In this document: piece after piece, positions 29,545 to 64,000 of the stretch
Position numbering within the stretch: position 1 is the stretch's first letter
Layout of the letters: the number at the start of each line of letters is the position of its first letter
From: Azomonas macrocytogenes
Lineage (GTDB): Bacteria; Pseudomonadota; Gammaproteobacteria; Pseudomonadales; Pseudomonadaceae
Length of the DNA stretch: 64,000 nt
Reading direction: 5' to 3'
Assembly (NCBI RefSeq): GCF_014191985.1
Contig: NZ_JACHXI010000011.1
Location: forward strand, 1 to 64,000
Notes under the pieces: model-generated
What the model saw: the letters and a program-made list of their open reading frames with translations, nothing else
Database searches by the model: none
What the model was told of the DNA's origin: nothing
Made by a program: the position numbers and the translations under genes

Positions 29545-32500
29545 TCATTGGTTCGATGCCAGAGAGGCTGCTTCTTCGATATCGACCGTTACCAGGCGAG
29601 AGCAGCCCGGTTCATGCATGGTTACCCCCATCAGCTGATCTGCCATCTCCATGGCGATCTTGTTATGAGTGATGTAAATAAATTGCACAGTCTGCGACAT
29701 CTCTTTCACCAATTTTGCATAGCGACCAACGTTTGTGTCATCTAGCGGCGCGTCTACCTCATCCAGCATGCAGAAGGGAGCTGGATTCAGCTGGAAGATA
29801 GCGAACACCAGCGCTAAGGCCGTCAGGGCTTTTTCTCCTCCTGAAAGCAGGTGAATGGTGCTGTTTTTCTTGCCGGGAGGCCGTGCCATGATCGCAACTC
29901 CGGTATCGAGCAAGTCTTCGCCGGTAAATTCCAGGTAGGCCGTTCCTCCACCGAATACCTTGGGGAAAAGCGCTTGTAGCCCACCGTTGATTTTGTCGAA
30001 GGTATCCTTGAAGCGGTTGCGAGTTTCCTGATCGATCTTGCGGATTACATTTTCCAGGGTCTGCAAGGCCTCGACCAAATCGTCGTTCTGCATATCCAGA
30101 TACTGCTTGCGTTCGGACTGTTGCTGGTATTCGTCGATAGCTGCCAGGTTGATGGGGCCGAGGCGCTGGATACGCATGGCCAGGTTTTCCAGCTCGGTTT
30201 TCAGGTTGCTTTCTGTGCTATCTGGCGCGAGGTTGACGAGTACGGTGTGTAGGTCGTAGCCCTCTTGGCGCAATTGTTCTTGTAGTGTCTTGCCTTGGAT
30301 ATCCAGAGCTTGCCATTCCAAGCGCTGTTTCTCCAATTGGCTGCGCAATAACTGGGCCTGCTGTTCGGCATTGGTTCTTCGCTTTTCGTCATCGCGCAGC
30401 TTGAAATCGATATTTTCCAGCGTTTGGCGGGCCTGTTGCACCTCTTCCTCGGCAACCATGCGGTGTTCGAGAAGTTCCTCCAGCTTGATCCGCAGCTCTT
30501 CCAGTGGTGCATTGCCTTCATCAAGGCTCAGGCAGAGCTGTTCATGCCATTCATTGGCTCGTTCGAACTGTTGCTGCAAACGTTCCAGCGATTGCCTGAG
30601 CGAGCCGTACTGCGCCTGCAGTGAGCCGAGGCGAACCGCAAGCTGATGAGCATGATCTTTGTGCTGTCGTGCTTCCTGGCGGATGCGATCCAGATGCTCA
30701 CGCAGTCGCTCCCGCTCGGTTTGCAGTTTTTCGCGTTGTTCGCAGGCTTGCTCCATTGCATCCAGGGCCGCTTGCAATTGCAGGCGAGAGTCGCCTAAAT
30801 GTTCGGTTTCCGTAATGCGTTGTGTCGCTATTTCCTGTAGTTCTTCATCCAGACGCTGCTGGCGCAGGGTCAGTTGTTCGTAGCGGGCCTGATGGGCGGA
30901 TAGCTGCGCTTTGATTTCAGCCTGGCGTCGCGATTCCTGTTGGATGCGCTGGCGCAATTGTTCGCGCATTTCCTGATGGTGCTGTTGTATTTCGCGTAAC
31001 TCGGCCAGATTCTGTTCGAGGTCTTCCTGCCTGAGGCTGCGCGTACTGCGTTCTTCGTGCAGATGCTCAAGCTCTTGTCCTCGTGCCAGTAAACCGGATT
31101 CTGCTCGATTCGCACGTCGTATGCACAGCGAATACCGACCGATCCAGTGACCATCGCGAGTGATCAACGTCTCGCCGTCACGTAGTGAAGCGCGTTCGGC
31201 GATGGCCTGTTCCAGCGATTCCACCGGTCGTATCTGGGCCAACCATGGCGACAGGTCATGCTGCGAGTCGACTTGACCCAGCAAGCCATTCACTGGTCGC
31301 AGAATTCGTTCGGCGGGGCTGAGCAGCCGCAGTTCGCCTTCTTCGAAAGTGGACAGATCGAATGCCGTGAAGTCGTCCAACAGAACGGCCTGAAGATCGT
31401 TGCCCAGCACGGTTTCAACAGCCAGTTCCCAACCAGGCTCCACTCGTAGCTCTTCGGCCAGGCGCGGATGTTTGGCCAAACCGTTGTCCTGTAGCCATTC
31501 AGCAACTCCCTTGCCGGGATTCAATGCCGCTTGCTGCAAGGCTTCCAATGAAGCAATACGACCCTCCAAGCGTTGCAGTTCTCCCAGGTTGTCCTGTTGG
31601 GTCTGCGCTGTTTCACGCAAGTTGTTGTGCAATTGCGCAAGATGTTCTTCCTGATCAGCTTCGGTAGCAGTCAGTTCCTCAAGATGCAATTCGCTGATTG
31701 CCAATTGTTCGCGCGATTCGGTGATAGCCGCATCTTCAGGATCGGCGCCCAGCAAGCCGCGCTCGTTCTCCAGGCGATGTTGCCGATTGGCCAGTTGCTC
31801 AAGGTTTTGCTCCAGTTGGCGGATCAATGACTGCTGGACTTCGGCGGTTCGTTGCGGTTCGGCACTGTGCTGGCTGAAGCTATCCCAGCGTTCCTGCCAG
31901 CTGTGCATGGCTATTTCTGCCTCATCGAGGCTGGCTGAGGCTTCCTCTGCCGTCGCCTTGGCCAACTCGTGTTCGGGTTCGAGGGAATGTATTTCCTCTT
32001 CGAGCGCTGCCAGTTGGAGGTGATCCTGTTCCAGATGAGCGGTGGTTTCCTGGCGTGCTCGTTCCGCTTCGCGCAAATCTTCCGCCAGTTGGCGCAAGCG
32101 CTGCTGCCCATGCTGGATATTCTGTTCGACCCGGGCGATATCCCCGCCAACTGAATAAAAGCGGCTTTGGGCTTGATTGAAGCGTTCAGATAGTTCGTGA
32201 TGACTATCGCGTATATGCTCGATGCTGGCATCGGCATTACGCTGTTCGGCAATCAGGGCTTCGAGCGCTGTTTCCTGCCCGATGATGACTTGCTGATACT
32301 GGTGGCTTTGCTCGTCGAGAGTGCGCCAACGCAAGGCGATCAATTGGGCGGTGGCCTGGCGTTCGTCTGCCTTGTACTGCTTGTATTTCTCGGCCGCTTG
32401 GGCCTGGCGGTGCAGGCGTTCGAGCTGTCGTTCCAGTTCTTCGCGCAAATCGCCCAGGCGCGCCAGGTTTTCCAGGGTTCGCCGAATGCGATTCTCGGTT

Positions 32501-33036
32501 TCCCGGCGGCGTTCCTTATATTTGGAAATGCCGGCGGCTTCCTCGATGAAGTTGCGTAGATCCTCTGGTTTGGCTTCGATCAGTTTGGAGATCATGCCCT
32601 GTTCGATGATCGAGTAACTACGCGGACCGAGGCCGGTACCCAGGAAGATATCGGTGATATCGCGACGCCGGCATTTGATGCCATTGAGAAAGTAGGTGTT
32701 CTGCGCATCGCGGGTGACCCGTCGGCGAATGGAAATTTCCGCAAACGCTGCATATTCGCCGACCAGTGTGCCGTCCGAGTTGTCGAAAACCAGCTCGATA
32801 CTGGCCTGGGTAACCGGTTTGCGGGTATTGGAGCCATTGAAAATGACATCAGTCATCGACTCGCCCCGCAGGTTCTTGGCCGAGCTTTCGCCCATGACCC
32901 AGCGCACCGCATCGATGATGTTGGATTTTCCGCAGCCATTGGGACCGACCACTGCGGCCATGTTGCTGGGGAAGTTGGCCGTAGTGGGATCGACGAAGGA
33001 TTTGAAGCCTGCGAGTTTGATACTTTTCAGGCGCAT
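29545..33036 (-). CDS. smc: chromosome segregation protein SMC
   Basis: A 1163-residue condensin ATPase. The N-terminal Walker [21 protein letters not shown] is near residue 32. Two long coiled coils flank a hinge around residues 520-640. The C-terminal half-ATPase carries the signature [16 protein letters not shown] and Walker [14 protein letters not shown]. The ATG at 33036 ([14 protein letters not shown]) matches the family start; the longer open frame has no similarity. A separate MksBEFG condensin is encoded at the window end, so this genome has at least two condensin types. Confidence 0.97.
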
Positions 33037-52435: not shown

Positions 52436-52804
52436 TTAGGCGGAGTTGAAGCCGCGATCAGCGAGTGACAAAGGCGGCAAGAATGAGTATGCAAAAAATG
52501 CCGACGTTGAGCTTTGGCTCCCGTCAAGGCTGCCCTGCGAATGTCGCAGCCGCTCGGCGAATGCCGCGATGGAATCGAGGCTGGCGAGATCCAGCGCCTC
52601 GAAACTCACATTCGCGCTAGGAATGCTTTGGCGAATCCGATTGACGGCTGCCGCCCCTTTTGACTGGCTTCGACCTGCAATGATGACGTTTGCGCCCGCA
52701 CGGGCCAGCGCCAAGGCGTCTTGGAACCCAAGGCCGCCGGTTCCAGTGACGACCGCCGTGCGGCCATGTTGGGAGGGGATGTCGGAAGCTGTCCAGTTGG
52801 TCAT
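52436..52804 (-). pseudogene. short-chain dehydrogenase, 3'-truncated (SDR copy 1)
   Basis: The start MTNWTASDIPSQHGRTAVVTG leads into an SDR Rossmann fold (TGTGGLGFQDALALARAGANVIIAGRS) and VSFEALDLASLDSIAAFAERL. After SQGSLDG the similarity stops and 28 unrelated residues follow, so the gene lost its catalytic YxxxK half. The cofactor motif is also changed (TGTGGLG rather than TGxxxGIG). Its promoter carries the same operator pair as the SDR at 56669-57868. It is GC-rich compared with the core genes. Confidence 0.7.
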
Positions 52805-52854
52805 GATCATTGCCTGGCGGGGGATAGGGAGGTACGCTTGACGCGAAAAATTCA

Positions 52855-52887
52855 GCACTTGGCGCATGATTTGGTGCACTAAGTGCA
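52855..52887. promoter_or_regulatory. operator pair upstream of SDR copy 1
   Basis: TGCACTAAGTGCA (52875-52887) is a perfect palindrome; GCACTTGGCGC (52855-52865) is a weaker match. Their centres are 21 bp apart and lie 56 and 77 bp from the SDR start, exactly as at the second copy. Confidence 0.65.
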
Positions 52888-52971
52888 GATTAACAATAGC
52901 CATTCGAACCCCGGGAACCCGCCCCAGCCGGTGTTGTGCTCCCCCGGCTCAACTCCTGTCCCGAGTGTGCA

Positions 52972-55238: not shown

Positions 55239-56672
55239 TCATCGCCGCGGAAGCCGGCAGCTCACTGCCTGCGCAGGGGAGGCTGTGGCGTGCACCACGG
55301 ATTGGCCAGGATCGTCATGCGCACCCTTGGAGGCCGCAGGCGCGGCGCTTGCCGGCGGCGGCTTCACGCGCTGTGCCTGCGCGCGCCCCAGCCACAGGCC
55401 CAGCGCGACCCAGGCCAGCGCCAGCGGCATGACCACGCTGGCCAGTCCGTCTATAGCCAGGCCCAGCCGCCCGAGCGCACCTTCGGTCTGCGCACCGATG
55501 ACATCGCCGGCGCGGTACATGAAGGTGTCGACGAAAGCCTTGGCCTTGTACTTCTCCTCGCGGCTGACCACGGTGAACAGCGCCTCGCGCGCCGGCCGGG
55601 TGATGCCGCGCTGCACGGCGCGGTTGGCGGCCTCCAGCAGGATCAGCACCACGAACGAGCCGTAGATCGCCAGCCCGATGAAGCCGAGCGCGGTGGCCAC
55701 CGGCAGGATCGCCAGCGCCACGCCGAGGCCGAAGCGCGTGATGATCTTCCCGGTCAGGGTGAGCTGCAGGACCAGCACCGCGACCTGCGTCCACATGTCG
55801 ATATTGCCCAGGAGCGCCGTGCGCGCGTCCATGCTGTCGGCCATCGCTGTAATCATCTGCAGGCGGGTGAAGTAGACGAAGGTCACGAGTACGGTCATCA
55901 GCAGGATGTAGCCGGCGATGCCGGTCAGGTAGCGCGAGCGGAACACCGCGCGCAGGCCCGCCCAGGTGCTGCCGCCGATGCGCTCGGCCTCGCCGGCGAA
56001 TCCGGCCGTGGCGTCGGACGTATCGGTGTCGGCCCGGTCCGGCGCCACGCGAACCAGAAGCCAGGCCATGGCCAGGGCCAGCAGCAGGAATCCGCCGGCG
56101 ACCAGCAGCAGGTTGGGCGTGCCCAGCGGCTCGGCCAGTTGCGAGGTCAGCCAGGGCCCGAAGATCGCGCCAAGTGTGCCGCCCATCGAGATCAGGGCGA
56201 ACAGGCGCTTGCCCTGATCGCTGGTGAAGCGGTCGGTCAGCAGCGCCCAGAACACCATGGTGACGAACAGGTTGAACACGCTGAACCAGACGTAGAACAA
56301 CTGGCCGCTGCGCTGGCCGACCGCGCCGGGCGCGAACATCAGCAGTACCCAGAAGCTTACGAGGCTCAGTACGAAGAAGCCGTAGGTCGCGCCGATGAAC
56401 TGCAGCCGCCGCAGGTGGCTGACCAGCCAGCCGTACAGCGGGTTCACCGCCAGCGTGACCAGCGCGGTGCCGATGAACAGCCAGCGGATGCTCTCGATCC
56501 CGCGCTCCATGCCCAGCGCATCGCGCACCGGCCGCAGCAGCATCAGCGCAGTCAGCACGCAGAAGAAGAATAACCCCGCGATCAGTACCGGCCCGACCTC
56601 CTCGCGGCGAAGGTTGAACAGGATCTGCAGCAGGCGTGGGCGACGCGGCGCCGGTGGCGTGATTCGGCTCAT
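55239..56672 (-). CDS. MFS-type transporter related to ATP/ADP (Npt) translocases
   Basis: A 477-residue membrane protein with about 12 transmembrane segments. The pattern RREEVGPVLIAGLFFFCVLTALMLLRPVRDALG at the N-terminus, DRFTSDQGKRLFALISMGGTLGAIFGPWL in loop 4 and the later ANRAVQRGITRPAREALFTVVSREEKYKAKAFVDTFMYRAGDVIG are typical of the Npt1/NTT-like MFS branch common in free-living proteobacteria. True nucleotide exchange is not implied. The ATG overlaps the SDR stop (ATGA). It is GC-rich (near 65% by eye) and probably transferred from a high-GC donor. Confidence 0.8.
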   Translation of the reverse strand: MSRITPPAPRRPRLLQILFNLRREEVGPVLIAGLFFFCVLTALMLLRPVRDALGMERGIESIRWLFIGTALVTLAVNPLYGWLVSHLRRLQFIGATYGFFVLSLVSFWVLLMFAPGAVGQRSGQLFYVWFSVFNLFVTMVFWALLTDRFTSDQGKRLFALISMGGTLGAIFGPWLTSQLAEPLGTPNLLLVAGGFLLLALAMAWLLVRVAPDRADTDTSDATAGFAGEAERIGGSTWAGLRAVFRSRYLTGIAGYILLMTVLVTFVYFTRLQMITAMADSMDARTALLGNIDMWTQVAVLVLQLTLTGKIITRFGLGVALAILPVATALGFIGLAIYGSFVVLILLEAANRAVQRGITRPAREALFTVVSREEKYKAKAFVDTFMYRAGDVIGAQTEGALGRLGLAIDGLASVVMPLALAWVALGLWLGRAQAQRVKPPPASAAPAASKGAHDDPGQSVVHATASPAQAVSCRLPRR

Positions 56673-57868
56673 GGGGAGAGGGGCCTGGCTTGGAGTACGC
56701 CGGTGTCCGAGACGAGAATGGAGATCAGGTCGATCGCAGGTCGCGGCAGCGCCACGGTGGCCGCGGCACTCGACGGGAACCGCGTGCCACTGAGCGCTTC
56801 GCTGACCGTCCAAAGGCGGGCGGCTGCCTCGGCATCCGTCGCGGCGGCGGGCACCTTGGCCAGGCCGAGCGGGCCACGCGTTTCCATCATGCCGGTCGGC
56901 TCGTAGTAGCTTCCGCCTTGCACCTCATGCGCGGTGGCGGCATACAGCGTCGGCAACGCGCCCTGTGCAGCCGGCTGGAACAGGAACGACAGGTTGCGGC
57001 GGACGAATCCCGTGACGCCGCCGTGATGAACCAGCAGATCGGTACGCGAAACCCCCGGATGGGATGCGATGCTCTGGAGGCTCCAGCCTGCCGCATCACT
57101 GCGGCGCTGCAGCTCAAGGGCGAACATCAGACAGGCTAGCTTAGATTGGCTGTAGGCGGCAGCCGGATCGTAGGCTTGCTCGAACTGCAGGTCCGAGAAG
57201 TGGATGGCGCCGCCGCGGTCGGCGGCGATGCTGGACAAGGTGACAACGCGGGGAGCATCGGCCTTCTGCAACAGTGGCAGCAGCTCCGCGGTCAGGGCGA
57301 AATGGCCCAGGTAGTTGACGGCGAACTGCATCTCGAACCCGTCCGCCGAGGTGCCGCGCTCGGGCGGCTCCATGATCCCTGCGTTGTTGATCAGGCCGTC
57401 GAGACGGGGCAGCGTCGCATCGAGGCGTTCGCTCAGCGCGCGGACCGAAGCGAGATCGGCCAGGTCGAGCACTTCGAAGCTCACATGCGCCTGGGGCGTT
57501 TCTTGGCGGATGCTCGTGATCGCCTCCTGGCCCCGCTCCGGATTGCGCGCCGCGATCACGACCTCGGCACCGGCAGCCGCCAGGGCTTTGGCGCTTTCGT
57601 AGCCGATGCCACTCGTCCCGCCCGTGACCAGGAAGATGCGCCCACGCTGAGAAGGCATATCGGCCAGGCTCCAATCGGGTTTGGGCGCGCTCTGCGCAAT
57701 CGAACTGTCCGTGGCACACGCGGAGCTCAGCAGCAAACCGAAGGTGGCGAGGTAGTTTCGCCACCGGGAATATGTCGGGCGTACTTTGGAATCCGGAGTC
57801 GCAGTTCCAGTGACGACCGCCGTGCGGCCACACCGAGAGGAGGTGTCTGAAGCTATCCAGTGGGTCAT
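56669..57868 (-). CDS. chimeric short-chain dehydrogenase/reductase (SDR copy 2)
   Basis: A 399-residue protein. Residues 1-22 (MTHWIASDTSSRCGRTAVVTG) copy the N-terminus of SDR copy 1. They are joined to a different, complete SDR that has its own export-like start (NYLATFGLLLSSACATDSS) and the cofactor motif VTGGTSGIGYESAKALAAAG, NNAGIM, and the catalytic YSQSKLACLMFALE (Tyr-x3-Lys). A deletion between two SDR genes explains this. The new hybrid N-terminus would disturb export of the second part. It is followed by the MFS gene with 4-bp overlap. Dehydrogenase activity is likely, the substrate unknown. Confidence 0.75.
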   Translation of the reverse strand: MTHWIASDTSSRCGRTAVVTGTATPDSKVRPTYSRWRNYLATFGLLLSSACATDSSIAQSAPKPDWSLADMPSQRGRIFLVTGGTSGIGYESAKALAAAGAEVVIAARNPERGQEAITSIRQETPQAHVSFEVLDLADLASVRALSERLDATLPRLDGLINNAGIMEPPERGTSADGFEMQFAVNYLGHFALTAELLPLLQKADAPRVVTLSSIAADRGGAIHFSDLQFEQAYDPAAAYSQSKLACLMFALELQRRSDAAGWSLQSIASHPGVSRTDLLVHHGGVTGFVRRNLSFLFQPAAQGALPTLYAATAHEVQGGSYYEPTGMMETRGPLGLAKVPAAATDAEAAARLWTVSEALSGTRFPSSAAATVALPRPAIDLISILVSDTGVLQARPLSP

Positions 57869-57915
57869 GGTCTTTGCCTTGCATGAGAAAGGAAGGTAAG
57901 ATAGGTGCATAAATA

Positions 57916-57950
57916 TTTGCACTAAGTGCAAAACTTATAGCACTGAGTGC
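57916..57950. promoter_or_regulatory. operator pair between SDR copy 2 and TetR
   Basis: TTTGCACTAAGTGCAAA (57916-57932) is a perfect palindrome and GCACTGAGTGC (57940-57950) a second one, centres 21 bp apart. They lie 56 and 77 bp upstream of the SDR start and abut the TetR ATG. The spacing of two DNA turns suits two TetR dimers. Confidence 0.75.
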
Positions 57951-59490: not shown

Positions 59491-60315
59491 TCAGCGCCAA
59501 ATCAGTTGCAGCTCGCTGGCGAGTGCCAGCATGTGCTGTTGCTTGATGCTGATCTGTTTTTCCTTCATGTCGAGCCAGATCTTGTTCCAGCCATCCAGTT
59601 TTGCGGTATCCAGATATCGAGCTGCCCTGTGTTGGCGGATAAAGTGTCCGCGATGGCCTTTTTCCAATAGTTTTTTGCTCAGACGAGGAACAAGGAGTGC
59701 GTCGGCACGTGGCAGGGTATGGGCGATTTGCAGGCCCGCGAGATCCCAGTCGGGAAAGACCGTGATGCGGCAAGCCTGGGGCAGGTTTACCAGCAAAGTG
59801 CGCAGGCCTTTGGCCAGTCCGTTATGGCCTCGGTAGAGAACCAGACTTTGGGCTATCTCTGGCGGCAGAGAAAATTCCTGCCAGTCATCGAAGCTGTCCA
59901 GATTTTCGATTATCAATACCTGCCTTATCTGGGCTAGGTCCAGGCTGGATAGCGGTACGCGCAGGCTCAACTGCGCAGATAAGACGGGAAGTGGCGCGGG
60001 TAGTCGCCCTTTGACCAGCACATGGTTTTCGTCGGGACGTGTGGGGGCGATTTTTTCGTCGATGGCCGTGGCAGCAGCCTGTACACGGTTACCAGTGGGC
60101 AGGGGTTCCAGTGGATCTATTCCCCATGCCTGGTGCGCCAGTTCAGCCAGGATTCGTTGCTGCTCTGGCGGTAAATACAGCTGGTTACCGCGTATCTCGC
60201 CGATATCGAAGACTGTGTGGATTTCCCGCCAGGCGGGAGTCAGTTTTACTTGATGGGCATATTTGCGTAATTGGTTATGAACCAGTCGCATATGCCGTTT
60301 GCTCAAGCCAGCCAC
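59491..60315 (-). CDS. MksG/JetD-like TOPRIM nuclease subunit
   Basis: A 274-residue protein that fits the DUF7281/MksG family. The C-terminal half has a TOPRIM pattern: LIIENLDSFDDW with Glu137 and VFPDWDLAGLQIA with Asp189 and Asp191, the acidic triad that binds metal. The N-terminal half is helical and likely binds DNA or the condensin. It overlaps the mksF end by 13 bp and is the last gene of the operon. In Wadjet systems this subunit cuts plasmid DNA after the condensin has extruded it. Confidence 0.75.
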   Translation of the reverse strand: MAGLSKRHMRLVHNQLRKYAHQVKLTPAWREIHTVFDIGEIRGNQLYLPPEQQRILAELAHQAWGIDPLEPLPTGNRVQAAATAIDEKIAPTRPDENHVLVKGRLPAPLPVLSAQLSLRVPLSSLDLAQIRQVLIIENLDSFDDWQEFSLPPEIAQSLVLYRGHNGLAKGLRTLLVNLPQACRITVFPDWDLAGLQIAHTLPRADALLVPRLSKKLLEKGHRGHFIRQHRAARYLDTAKLDGWNKIWLDMKEKQISIKQQHMLALASELQLIWR

Positions 60316-61523
60316 AGGCAGATATCCCTGATAATGAAATTGCCGGAATAGTCTGGGTGCGGCTCACCGATCGGGTCCAGGACGAAGTGGCGTTTCTGTT
60401 CTGCAGGCAGCCCTTCGAAACCACCAATGACTTGATACAGCCAGCTTTCGGCATCCCAGGGCAACGCTTGGTGCTGACGATATTCCAGCGCGGAAAGACG
60501 CAGACCGCTGTCGATTACGCTGCAGAAATAGGCCGATACGGCTTCCCGGATCGGATTGCTCTGTACTTCGAAGGTTTCCGGTTCATGCAGAAGCAATTCC
60601 GCTGCCTCGACAGGTACTTGCAGGGAACGCTCCTGGGGCTGCAACGCCTTGATCTGGGCGATCAATTCCAGTAGCTCGTTTTCGTGTTGCTGATTGTGAA
60701 TATCCACCGCGGCAGGAGCCAGGATGGGCGTGGCCTGATTGAACAGTTGCGGGATTTCCTTGGCGCCAGTGTGATTGCCAATCCGATAGTCCGGGTGCTG
60801 CTCCAGATGCAACAGCCAGCCCTTGAGCAGGCGAGTGCGACCACGAATCTGGCGAAAGCGGCCGAGCAATTCCAGTAACCGGCCTTGTACGATGCTCAGC
60901 TCCTGGGCGCACTCGCTGACGGTGCGTTGCAAACGGGTAACCAGTAGCCGGCGCAAATCGCGCAGATCGCCAGCCGTTTCGGCCAGCTCTTCGAAGCTGA
61001 TCATCTCCAGTCCGTTGAGCAACTCGCTTACTTGGGATTGCGCCAGTTCGTTTTCGCGGATCTTGGCGTTGAGCGTGCCGACATAACCGAATTCGTTGTT
61101 CAGGCGGCTCCAGAGCACACGGGTGCCGTGGCGCAGGGTTTCGCCGAAGGCATAGACATGCTCTTTCAGATCCGCCAGATACACATCCGCGGCGGCATAG
61201 TCGCCCTGATGGCGCGCTTCCTTGTAATGCGCTGCCAGGGTTTTGAAGGTGACCAGCGCCGAACCGGTGTTTGCATCGATCTGGCGGTTGCGATCATCGC
61301 GCAAGGCTTCTTCCAGCAGCGACCGGACGGTCCGGCGCAGATGCAGATCGGCTTCCGGTTCGGGGCGATAGAGAATCCCGTCTTTTATCAACCGATCCTG
61401 GACTGCGGGTTCCAACGCCTGGTCGGGCAGTGAACCGGAAAGGTAGGCGTCCATGATGGGGTCTGCATGGCGGGCCAGTTGCTTGAGAAAGCGCACCCCG
61501 GTCTGATGGAGATCGCCACTCAT
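60303..61523 (-). CDS. mksF: MksF-like kleisin subunit
   Basis: A 406-residue, mostly helical protein with an N-terminal winged-helix-like part and long helices around residues 70-220 (LRRTVRSLLEEALRDDRNRQ is the start of one). It has no transmembrane segment or enzyme motif. Position between mksE and mksG, size and helical content fit the MukF/MksF kleisin that bridges the SMC heads. Its ATG overlaps the mksE stop (ATGA). The assignment relies on order and fold impression more than on motifs. Confidence 0.7.
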   Translation of the reverse strand: MSGDLHQTGVRFLKQLARHADPIMDAYLSGSLPDQALEPAVQDRLIKDGILYRPEPEADLHLRRTVRSLLEEALRDDRNRQIDANTGSALVTFKTLAAHYKEARHQGDYAAADVYLADLKEHVYAFGETLRHGTRVLWSRLNNEFGYVGTLNAKIRENELAQSQVSELLNGLEMISFEELAETAGDLRDLRRLLVTRLQRTVSECAQELSIVQGRLLELLGRFRQIRGRTRLLKGWLLHLEQHPDYRIGNHTGAKEIPQLFNQATPILAPAAVDIHNQQHENELLELIAQIKALQPQERSLQVPVEAAELLLHEPETFEVQSNPIREAVSAYFCSVIDSGLRLSALEYRQHQALPWDAESWLYQVIGGFEGLPAEQKRHFVLDPIGEPHPDYSGNFIIRDICLWLA

Positions 61524-62161
61524 AGCAGATTGCTCTGGCTGGCAGTTTCCGCGCGGGCTTCCAGATCCAGGCTTTCGGTCTCGTCGATGAAGCGGATCAC
61601 TTCGTAGAGATGATCAAGTTTGCCGGTCGCCAGATAGATCTGCTTGTCGGGGTTGGGGCGCGTGAGGTAGCCCAGGTCGCACAGGCGCTTGAAGACCTGC
61701 TTGAGCTGGCCATCGACGCCGTTACTGTTGGAATTGAACAACCGGTAATGGCTGATCCTGGCCAACTGCTCGCGAAACGCGGGAGTATCTTCGATGATGG
61801 TTTGCAGCTCGTTGAGGCGTACCGGGGTGCCTTCGGTCAGCGGTGCATCCTGGGCGCCGGCTTCCTGGACCAGTACCAGCCATTCGGCCAGCGGTGCCAG
61901 TGCATTGCAGGTATCGCGAAACTGTTGGGCGATGACCTTGCGTTCCTCGTCGTCCAGTTGGCGGTAGCCACAAAAGAACACATCGCTGTCCGTACTGCCG
62001 CCGACCATGGCCACTGTGCGGTTGAGCTGGCTCAGGTAGTCGTCCACCTGCTCGCGGTTGGCAGGATTTTTCAAAAATCGCCAGCCTTCCTCGTCGGTGG
62101 TGCGACAAATGAATTCGCCCTTGAGCAGGCGTTCGAGAACCTGACCTTTGGTCGATAGCAT
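61520..62161 (-). CDS. mksE: MksE-like KITE subunit
   Basis: A 213-residue protein with the features of a winged-helix KITE subunit: MLSTKGQVLERLLKGEFICR at the start, LNELQTIIEDTPAFREQLARISHYRLF in the middle and KRLCDLGYLTRPNPDKQIYLATGKLDHLYEVI near the end. MukE/MksE proteins bind the kleisin and DNA. The gene starts immediately after the mksB stop (TAA then ATG). Confidence 0.7.
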   Translation of the reverse strand: MLSTKGQVLERLLKGEFICRTTDEEGWRFLKNPANREQVDDYLSQLNRTVAMVGGSTDSDVFFCGYRQLDDEERKVIAQQFRDTCNALAPLAEWLVLVQEAGAQDAPLTEGTPVRLNELQTIIEDTPAFREQLARISHYRLFNSNSNGVDGQLKQVFKRLCDLGYLTRPNPDKQIYLATGKLDHLYEVIRFIDETESLDLEARAETASQSNLL

Positions 62162-64000
62162 TTATATCGTCTCCTGGGCCTGACGCTGTTGCAGTTTCTC
62201 CGCGATGGCATCCATCTTCGGCTTGACTATCTGTAGCTGTTTCGTCTGCTTGTTGACGATATAGCGGTTGGCGAACAGCGAGAGAACGTCTGAATCCGGG
62301 TTGGGGAATGCGCCAAGAACACGGATATTGTTACTGCTGCAGGCATCGAAAATCTTCTTTACGTTGGTGTGGTGCAGCGTACCGATTTCGTCGATCGGCC
62401 AGTGAATGGTGGCGGGAGAGGCGCCACGTAGTAGGCGGGTGAAGGCCAACAGGAATTTGCACAGGATCAGGTAAGCCATGCCATGGCTGGAGGATTCGTT
62501 GAGCTGGCGGTCGGTGCGGATCACCAGATCGCTGTTGCCTTCGCGCAGGCGCAGTTCGATTTCCAGCAGCCCGGCGATTCCGCCGCTGAGAGCCGAGCGA
62601 CCGATGATATCCAAGGCCCGGCGCATGCTGCTGGTGTAGTCCTCGCCGGGCAGGTCGTTGAAGCCGTCTGTGCGCCATTGCTGGAAAGCCTTGATGAAGG
62701 CCTTGAGTTCAGGCCAGAACTCCAGTTCGCTGATTCGCGAGCGAATGCGCACTGCCGAATCGGATACGCCATCGAGAAAGAGTTCTTCGCTGACTTCGCG
62801 GGTAATGCGGATACTTTGCGTAACGATGCTGCGATCGATGTCGACCAGGACATCATAGTAATTATTGAGCTCCAGGCCGAAGATCCGGCCCTGTTCGCGC
62901 AGCGCCATGATGCTTTGCGGCACCATGACGTTGAGCAATTGCTCCAGGTGCGGCACCAGCTTGCGATGATCCAGAAGCGGAATGCCGCGCTCGCCGACCA
63001 GAGTGCATTCTTCGCGGCTGCGCTCCCAGGTTTCTGCCAGGCTGGAGCCGGATTGGCCGGCGATCAAGGTATCGAAGTGTTCGACATGGGCCTTGATGGC
63101 CGCCAGCAGTTGCTCGCGACTTTGCAGCAAATTCTCCCCGAGACGCAGCCGTTCGTGCAGCTCACCATCGGGAATGCTGCCTTCGGGCGGCAGTTTCAGT
63201 TCCTTCAGGCGGTGGAGCAGGGTTCTCAAGCGGGTCAGGAGCTCGTCCGCTACGGTTTTTGCCGCAGCGGCTTGCATGCGTAGCTCTTCCAGCCGACTGC
63301 GCTCGGCCTTGAAAGCAGCCGTAGCCTTTGCCAGTTGCTGCTCCAGGGTAGTTGCGCGGAGCTGACTTTCGCTCGATTCGGTTTGCAGCAGCGGTTTGCG
63401 TTGCAGCCAGTGGTGCTGGTACCAATCAGCGTAGCTGTGTACGTCGGAACGGCGTTGCTCGGCAGTGGCGATTTTTTTATTCAGCGCGTCCAGTTCCCGT
63501 TTCAGCGAGACGATGACGTTCTCGTCCACGCCGCGAGAATGCAGTTCGGCCTTGTACCAGTTTTCGCATTCCTTGAGTTCTTGCTGGGCTTTGCTCTGGC
63601 GTTGTTCGATATTTTTCTTGAGCTGCTGGATTTGTGCATAGAGGCTGCCGAGCACCTGTTGCCAGTACGCGGTTTTTTCCAGACGATCCGCGCCATGCTG
63701 GTTTTTCAAGTCGGCCAGCCATTGTTCGTGCTGGCTGGCGAGCTGCTTGAGTGCGCCAGTCAGTTCGGTGAGCTGCTTGCGCGCCTTGAGCTTGCGCTCC
63801 TGCAAGGCGGCATTGATTTGCTCCTGCTGGTTGCGCTTTTCCTCCTTGATGCGCCGGATATCTTCGCGCCGGTTGCGTTGTTCGGTGTGGCTCAGGAGCA
63901 GGCGTTGCTGTACGTCCTCCACGGCTTCGTTGGCTTCGATAAGCTGTTTTTCGGCGAATTGCTGCTGGTTTTTTGCTTCCTGCACTTCGTCTTCGAGGCA
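62162..64000 (-). CDS. mksB: MksB-like SMC ATPase, C-terminal part (runs off the window)
   Basis: At least 612 residues are present; the N-terminal head and start lie beyond 64000. The visible part is coiled coil for about 290 residues, then the C-terminal ATPase half with ESSSHGMAYLILCKFLLAF (signature region) and the Walker B IHWPIDEIGTLHHTN. The SMC hinge is short, as in MksB/MukB relatives rather than Smc. The four-gene order SMC-KITE-kleisin-TOPRIM on one strand identifies an MksBEFG/Wadjet-like condensin. Confidence 0.8.
   Translation of the reverse strand, partial: CLEDEVQEAKNQQQFAEKQLIEANEAVEDVQQRLLLSHTEQRNRREDIRRIKEEKRNQQEQINAALQERKLKARKQLTELTGALKQLASQHEQWLADLKNQHGADRLEKTAYWQQVLGSLYAQIQQLKKNIEQRQSKAQQELKECENWYKAELHSRGVDENVIVSLKRELDALNKKIATAEQRRSDVHSYADWYQHHWLQRKPLLQTESSESQLRATTLEQQLAKATAAFKAERSRLEELRMQAAAAKTVADELLTRLRTLLHRLKELKLPPEGSIPDGELHERLRLGENLLQSREQLLAAIKAHVEHFDTLIAGQSGSSLAETWERSREECTLVGERGIPLLDHRKLVPHLEQLLNVMVPQSIMALREQGRIFGLELNNYYDVLVDIDRSIVTQSIRITREVSEELFLDGVSDSAVRIRSRISELEFWPELKAFIKAFQQWRTDGFNDLPGEDYTSSMRRALDIIGRSALSGGIAGLLEIELRLREGNSDLVIRTDRQLNESSSHGMAYLILCKFLLAFTRLLRGASPATIHWPIDEIGTLHHTNVKKIFDACSSNNIRVLGAFPNPDSDVLSLFANRYIVNKQTKQLQIVKPKMDAIAEKLQQRQAQETI

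What the first reader, a model, noticed from the sequence alone, without database searches (positions are those of the whole stretch)
59491..64000. MksBEFG (Wadjet-like) anti-plasmid condensin at the window edge, gene order SMC-KITE-kleisin-nuclease
Four overlapping or abutting minus-strand genes encode an SMC ATPase, a KITE-like subunit, a kleisin-like subunit and a TOPRIM protein with an intact acidic triad (Glu137, Asp189, Asp191). MksBEFG and JetABCD systems restrict plasmids by loop extrusion and cleavage. The order here places the SMC first; in the classic jetABCD order the kleisin is first. The chromosome also carries a normal Smc, so the two condensins must divide labour.
Basis: partly seen in the sequence, partly recalled or inferred. 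Interest (0 to 1): 0.72.

Follow-up and report, generated by a model that had tools for sequence, protein, structure and literature searches.

The report
Wadjet-like condensin-nuclease operon, new variant
A bacterium related to Pseudomonas carries a four-gene DNA-looping machine with its own DNA cutter that most likely destroys invading plasmids; it is a variant the PADLOC defence models do not recognise, and close relatives have repeatedly lost the cutter while keeping the looping machine.

Summary
Four packed minus-strand genes encode a DUF3584 SMC ATPase (cut by the window edge; the full 1224-aa gene was recovered from the contig), an MksE-family KITE, a kleisin that matches no family by sequence but folds like MukF, and a DUF7281 Toprim protein whose closest solved structures are MksG, topoisomerase VI-A, Spo11 and JetD. 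E137, D189 and D191 are invariant. The order SMC-KITE-kleisin-Toprim holds in 28 intact loci, on chromosomes and plasmids, several beside BREX, Druantia, Lamassu or CBASS genes. The best reading is a Wadjet/MksBEFG-like plasmid-restriction machine. It is not Wadjet type I, II or III by PADLOC models and has a different gene order, so I call it a new, Wadjet-like variant. The main addition: 17 related loci, some at the same chromosomal site, keep SMC-KITE-kleisin without any Toprim gene. Their ATPase motifs are intact and the pairs that could be measured are under purifying selection; the SMC tree needs at least six changes of nuclease state. That parallels the proposal that P. aeruginosa MksBEF arose from JetABCD by losing JetD, and leaves a real rival: an auxiliary chromosome condensin. 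Function is untested.

The parts
59491..60315 (-). Toprim nuclease subunit (MksG/JetD-like, DUF7281), 274 aa, GTG start
   Evidence: PF23947 196.8 bits, PF09983 JetD_C 20 bits; profile of the family finds one PDB sequence, MksG 8b7f, E 0.042; fold matches MksG Z 9.5, TopoVI-A 9.4, Spo11 8.0, JetD 7.3
59743..59907 (-). Toprim acidic triad: codons of E137 (59905-59907), D189 (59749-59751), D191 (59743-59745)
   Evidence: invariant in 20 homologues; the profile alignment to 8b7f puts E137 on the glutamate of MksG 'VENLDSF' and D189 on the first Asp of 'DLD', which I infer to be E236 and D279, the residues whose alanine mutants lose nuclease activity
60303..61523 (-). kleisin subunit (MukF-like), 406 aa
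   Evidence: no significant Pfam, NCBIfam, PADLOC or PDB sequence match; AlphaFold model mean pLDDT 75 with helical N-terminal part, linker and C-terminal alpha/beta domain; best Foldseek and VIA rows are all MukF
61520..62161 (-). KITE subunit (MksE family), 213 aa
   Evidence: PF21980 MksE 25.7 bits, cut-off 27; 18 of 20 family members hit it, best 1e-12
62162..64000 (-). SMC ATPase, C-terminal 612 of 1224 aa; gene continues to contig position 65836. Signature SSSHG near 62480-62491, Walker B DE at 62387-62392; Walker A GTNASGKTT lies outside the window
   Evidence: PF12128 DUF3584 1262.7 bits over the whole protein; motifs aligned in 42 homologues

Best explanation
The operon encodes a Wadjet/MksBEFG-like SMC complex. 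Two SMC ATPases bridged by a MukF-like kleisin and KITE dimers load on DNA and extrude a loop with ATP. When extrusion on a small closed circle runs to completion, the Toprim subunit, a metal-dependent relative of MksG, JetD and topoisomerase VI-A, is switched on and makes a double-strand break, so the plasmid is lost. Shown here by sequence and predicted fold: the four subunits, their catalytic motifs, fixed operon order, and linkage to defence genes and mobile elements. Inferred from the type I literature: loop extrusion, circle sensing, cleavage, plasmid restriction. In many sister lineages the nuclease gene is gone and the three-subunit remainder persists, most likely as an auxiliary chromosome condensin.
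For: Subunit identity. Conserved four-gene order in 28 intact bacterial loci. Patchy distribution: SMC in 14 of 57 relatives and 22 of 398 in a phylum sample; DUF7281 in 12 of 57 and 13 of 398. Defence and mobile context: IncC plasmid locus beside Tn7-like genes with a CBASS cyclase (388 bits), Marinobacter plasmid with Druantia DruE3 (1487 bits), Halomonadaceae-group chromosome with LmuA/LmuB downstream, Acinetobacter plasmid with BREX. Module moved between chromosomal sites at 96% identity. Active-site residues match those tested in MksG.
Against: No function was tested. The window copy sits next to pabB, and loci of other genera in the family lie by the same gene (pabB itself beside L030; a related ORF, probably antisense to pabB, beside L033 and L097), so it looks vertically inherited rather than freshly acquired. 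17 related loci have no Toprim gene. Sequence similarity to Jet/Mks is weak for every subunit and absent for the kleisin. The Toprim model has mean pLDDT 62.6 from only four sequences; its first 90 residues are poorly modelled. An intact copy sits on a 40-kb plasmid, a size type I Wadjet would be expected to restrict.
Confidence: 0.7

Rival explanations
1. Auxiliary chromosome condensin: the SMC-KITE-kleisin core mainly shapes or segregates the chromosome, as P. aeruginosa MksBEF does, and the Toprim subunit is a topoisomerase-like or repair accessory rather than an anti-plasmid effector.
For: 17 loci keep the three-gene core without any Toprim gene, with intact ATPase motifs and low dN/dS where measurable (0.14-0.20 in one Shewanella pair without nuclease, 0.10-0.17 between a copy with and one without it). 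In eight Alteromonadaceae-like loci none has it. The same site carries both forms in Shewanella and probably in the window's family.
Against: No conserved tyrosine outside the Toprim domain, so a TopoVI-like strand-passage role is unlikely. The most divergent and all intact plasmid-borne members keep the nuclease. Linkage to BREX, Druantia, Lamassu, CBASS and Tn7-like genes. 31 of 33 genomes also carry a canonical Smc.
Confidence: 0.2
2. Anti-phage or abortive system: the SMC core senses phage DNA or DNA ends (as Lamassu or Rad50-like systems do) and the Toprim nuclease kills the cell or cuts phage DNA.
For: Defence-island neighbours, and weak LmuB profile matches in 3 of 20 SMCs.
Against: KITE and MukF-like kleisin subunits are present, which Lamassu lacks; the LmuB hit to the window SMC is weak and lies in the coiled coil. 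Closest Toprim relative by profile and fold is the plasmid nuclease MksG.
Confidence: 0.07
3. On the history only (compatible with either function): the nuclease is an add-on and not ancestral; three-gene condensins acquired DUF7281 several times.
For: Nuclease presence and absence alternate on the SMC tree, at least six changes on well-supported branches.
Against: All divergent outgroup members have it in the same position, and the Toprim tree keeps the same main groups as the SMC tree, which fits one origin and several losses.
Confidence: 0.15

Closest known systems
Wadjet type I (JetABCD / MksBEFG; C. glutamicum, P. aeruginosa PA14, E. coli GF4-3)
   Same: SMC, KITE, kleisin and Toprim nuclease in one operon; MksE-type KITE; Toprim with Glu and DxD; MksG is the best PDB match of the Toprim subunit
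   Different: Gene order SMC-KITE-kleisin-nuclease instead of kleisin-KITE-SMC-nuclease; DUF3584 SMC with SSSHG signature; kleisin without sequence similarity; nuclease of 274 aa with about 100 residues before the Toprim domain, against about 215 in MksG (from the aligned ranges); only marginal PADLOC scores
Wadjet types II and III
   Same: SMC complex plus Toprim effector; a few family members reach PADLOC JetD2 and JetD3 models weakly
   Different: No JetA match at all and only a marginal JetB1 match for the window proteins; scores to JetD1, JetD2 and JetD3 all weak
P. aeruginosa MksBEF (three-gene condensin without nuclease)
   Same: Sister loci of this family have exactly this three-gene composition beside a canonical Smc
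   Different: The window locus has the nuclease; PAO1 MksB was not compared directly here
MukBEF
   Same: Predicted kleisin fold is MukF-like over its length
   Different: PF04310 MukB absent from the window genome; MukBEF has no nuclease

Membership tests
Wadjet / MksBEFG (in general) | SMC, KITE, kleisin and Toprim subunit encoded together | tested here: met
   28 intact bacterial loci in the same order
Wadjet / MksBEFG (in general) | SMC with intact Walker A, signature and Walker B | tested here: met
   GTNASGKTT, SSSHG, IDE in the core-clade members; signature departs from LSGG
Wadjet / MksBEFG (in general) | KITE of the MksE/JetB family | tested here: met
   window protein 25.7 bits, just under the cut-off of 27; 18 of 20 family members match, best 1e-12
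Wadjet / MksBEFG (in general) | kleisin related to MksF/JetA/MukF | tested here: inconclusive
   no sequence match; predicted fold is MukF-like, eight best VIA rows, Z 12.0-12.9, with large rmsd and helical background near 11-12
Wadjet / MksBEFG (in general) | Toprim nuclease with conserved Glu and DxD, no 5Y-CAP tyrosine | tested here: met
Wadjet / MksBEFG (in general) | restricts plasmids by ATP-dependent cleavage of circular DNA | not testable with these tools
   needs an experiment
Wadjet types I-III as modelled in PADLOC | subunits match the JetA-D profiles of one type | tested here: not met
   best scores: JetD1 21.2 bits, JetB1 15, JetC3 19.4 (coiled coil), JetA none; PADLOC gives no cut-offs here
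Wadjet type I / mksFEBG operon | gene order kleisin-KITE-SMC-nuclease | tested here: not met
   order is SMC-KITE-kleisin-nuclease in every locus
MukBEF | MukB N-terminal domain PF04310 | tested here: not met
   no match in the window genome; only G301 of 33 is over the cut-off
Lamassu | LmuB SMC-like protein with LmuA effector, no KITE or kleisin | tested here: not met
   LmuB 23 bits, in the coiled-coil part; KITE present, kleisin likely

The most novel reading that the evidence does not exclude
This is a fourth branch of Wadjet, missed by the PADLOC models, in which the nuclease has been lost many times in closely related chromosomal loci while the SMC-KITE-kleisin motor stayed under selection. 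It would catch the conversion of an anti-plasmid weapon into a chromosome condensin repeatedly and recently, including in Shewanella at one shared site.
Probability: 0.45. Interest if true: 0.77.

Novelty: new variant of a known kind. Interest (0 to 1): 0.6.

Why it matters
The SMC and Toprim families bear no functional name in Pfam (DUF3584, DUF7281), and plasmid records call the subunits 'ATP-binding protein' or mostly 'hypothetical protein', so defence screens built on PADLOC-like models would miss the system. It widens the known diversity of SMC-nuclease machines. Above all, pairs of close relatives with and without the nuclease make an open question testable: did MukBEF/MksBEF condensins come from defence systems by losing the nuclease (proposed in PMC10586767)? 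The Shewanella pairs and the sister copies L029/L097, 96% identical in DNA, are natural experiments for that.

Tried and rejected
KITE C-terminal tail Q..LL as a docking motif for the nuclease: rejected, it is kept in loci without the nuclease. Co-occurrence with classic Wadjet: all six genomes of the window's family with a classic JetD_C gene also carry this SMC (12 of 36 genomes; hypergeometric p 0.0005, genus level 0.002), but in the phylum sample only 1 of 37 JetD_C genomes does, no more than expected by chance, so I do not claim a general link. Replacement effector in three-gene loci: downstream genes are lineage-specific (dicarboxylate symporter, RND pump and others), no common new effector. 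Replacement of canonical Smc by the three-gene form: rejected, canonical Smc is present in all 13 genomes with the three-gene form that were searched. Single-sequence PDB searches with the SMC and Toprim found nothing; profile searches with SMC and KITE found only coiled-coil, ABC Walker A or chance hits. Petrushenko 2011 and a review of ABC ATPases were not held.
Full report
WHAT IS THERE. The window end holds four minus-strand genes read in the order SMC, KITE, kleisin, Toprim. The SMC is cut by the window edge. The same contig (C11 of the window's genome) supplies the rest: 62162-65836, 1224 aa, 125 bp downstream of pabB. It matches PF12128 (DUF3584) from end to end with 1262.7 bits. The Toprim protein matches PF23947 (DUF7281) with 197 bits and PF09983 (JetD_C) with 20 bits against a cut-off of 22. 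The KITE matches PF21980 (MksE) with 25.7 bits against 27. The kleisin candidate matches nothing credible in Pfam, NCBIfam or PADLOC. A canonical Smc lies in the same window at 29578-33033.

SUBUNIT IDENTITY. Alignments of 20 homologues were made for each subunit. In the Toprim family K88, E137, N138, R162, G163, D189, D191, G194, P210 and Q259 are invariant. All 20 members hit DUF7281, six hit JetD_C, two the TopoVI-A/Spo11 Toprim model and two DUF2399. The family profile finds one sequence in the whole PDB at E below 10: MksG, 8b7f, E 0.042. In that alignment E137 falls on the glutamate of 'VENLDSF' and D189 on the first aspartate of 'DLD'. From the spacing (43 residues apart) I infer these are E236 and D279 of MksG, the metal-binding residues whose alanine mutants have drastically impaired nuclease activity (PMC10123090). 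The predicted fold (mean pLDDT 62.6; mostly 58-88 over the Toprim part) matches MksG Z 9.5, TopoVI-A 9.4, Spo11 8.0 and JetD 7.3; other Toprim proteins follow at 6.6 and below. Y161 is present in 19 of 20 members inside a YRG motif. MksG has Y258-R259 in the same stretch, but the profile alignment does not put the two tyrosines in one column, so this is a lead only. No tyrosine is conserved before the Toprim domain.

For the KITE, 18 of 20 members hit MksE, best 1e-12. The kleisin was modelled from eight sequences (mean pLDDT 75). Foldseek's eight best rows and VIA's eight best rows are all MukF chains, Z 12.0-12.9, aligned over most of the chain in some of them. Caution: helical proteins such as syntaxin and STAT reach Z 11-12, and the MukF rmsd values are large because the linkers differ. 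Gene position, domain layout and the specific list of MukF chains together make a MukF-like kleisin likely.

NOT A NAMED WADJET TYPE. PADLOC models for types I to III give about 21 bits or less to the window's Toprim, KITE and SMC proteins and none to the kleisin. Over the family the Toprim members hit JetD1, JetD2 and JetD3 models, all weakly. The SMC members hit JetC1 and JetC3 weakly and partly in the coiled coil. The published operon order is mksFEBG, that is kleisin, KITE, SMC, nuclease (PMC10123090); here it is SMC, KITE, kleisin, nuclease in all loci. I therefore file it as Wadjet-like and not as a member of types I to III. The literature searched gave no paper that names this operon; papers outside the held library could.

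DISTRIBUTION. In 57 relatives the SMC occurs in 14 genomes and DUF7281 in 12. In a phylum sample of 398 genomes they occur in 22 and 13. One relative is Denitrificimonas caeni (same locus as G035), which suggests that the window's family is Pseudomonadaceae (my inference). Plasmid records with intact four-gene operons include Marinobacter pMAQU02, Acinetobacter, Vibrio and Rhodoferax plasmids, annotated there as 'ATP-binding protein' and mostly 'hypothetical protein'. Neighbours include BREX, a Druantia DruE3, a CBASS cyclase near Tn7-like genes, and LmuA/LmuB on a Halomonadaceae-group chromosome.

NUCLEASE-FREE SISTERS. In L055, L056, L058 and L059 (Shewanella, Salinimonas, Idiomarina) the three core genes are followed directly by unrelated genes; no Toprim gene is there. 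In the phylum sample 11 of 22 SMC genomes lack it. In Shewanella, loci with (L043, L045) and without it (L055, L058, L099, L100) share the same downstream dicarboxylate symporter gene: one site, two states. On an SMC tree of 42 rows the label needs seven changes, six forced by well-supported branches; the core clade holds 17 rows with and 17 without (quick method, long branches among outgroups). The divergent and intact plasmid-borne members all have it, and the Toprim tree keeps the main groups of the SMC tree, so repeated loss is likelier than repeated gain. Copies without nuclease keep Walker A, signature and Walker B. In the one pair of nuclease-free copies with dS below saturation for all three genes (L055/L100) dN/dS is 0.14-0.20; between L029 and L097 (without) it is 0.10-0.17; for most other pairs dS is saturated. 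The Toprim gene has the highest dN of the four in each pair where it could be measured.

A MOVED MODULE. L029 (with nuclease) and L097 (without) are 96% identical in DNA from near the SMC start to the kleisin stop and unrelated outside. L097 appears to lie at the pabB-side site, L029 between msrPQ-like and eamA-like genes. So the core can move as a unit even in the chromosomal clade.

MECHANISM. By homology to type I Wadjet (PMC10586767): ATP-driven loop extrusion by a dimer of SMC motors, self-collision on small circles, then activation of the Toprim nuclease. Shown here: subunits, motifs, linkage. Inferred: extrusion, circle sensing, cleavage. In nuclease-free sisters the motor most likely works on the chromosome, as P. 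aeruginosa MksBEF does; the review calls that complex a likely product of JetD loss. All 13 three-gene genomes searched also have canonical Smc, so it is an addition and not a replacement.

LIMITS. The association with classic Wadjet in the window's family (6 of 6) did not hold in the phylum sample.

Noticed in passing
L119:14974-21329 (PP438435.1, 86907-93262): A 209-kb record named Dolichospermum phage Dfl-JY45 carries the complete four-gene operon (30% SMC, 36% Toprim identity; Toprim motifs and Walker motifs intact). GC is 62-70%, and no structural phage gene is named in the parts read, so whether the record is a phage of that host is unverified.
   Followed up: partly
L113:1073-7547 (Acinetobacter plasmid pACI-b25a, 40,249 bp): An intact four-gene operon on a 40-kb circular plasmid, below the 50-100 kb that type I Wadjet spares. 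Either the plasmid is exempt or this variant has another size limit.
   Followed up: partly
L052:5977-10949 and L054:7992-8657: On an IncC plasmid the SMC gene is split by ISSod4; in L054 only a piece of about 220 residues from the N-terminus remains, next to ISAhy2, and further enterobacterial plasmid records match over the same 220 residues. Acinetobacter johnsonii plasmids also keep only fragments.
   Followed up: partly
L112:3505-7349 and L048:7995-8876 (G187): Two divergent DUF7281-like proteins in one genome, one beside a 998-aa SMC-like ORF that barely matches this family (35 bits): possibly another SMC-Toprim pair.
   Followed up: no
window 61520-61560 (KITE C-terminus): A short tail Q..LL ends almost every KITE, in loci with and without the nuclease; its binding partner is unknown.
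   Followed up: partly
window 52436-52903 and 56669-57931: Two short-chain dehydrogenase-like ORFs with similar N-termini; the first is short and looks like a broken copy.
   Followed up: no
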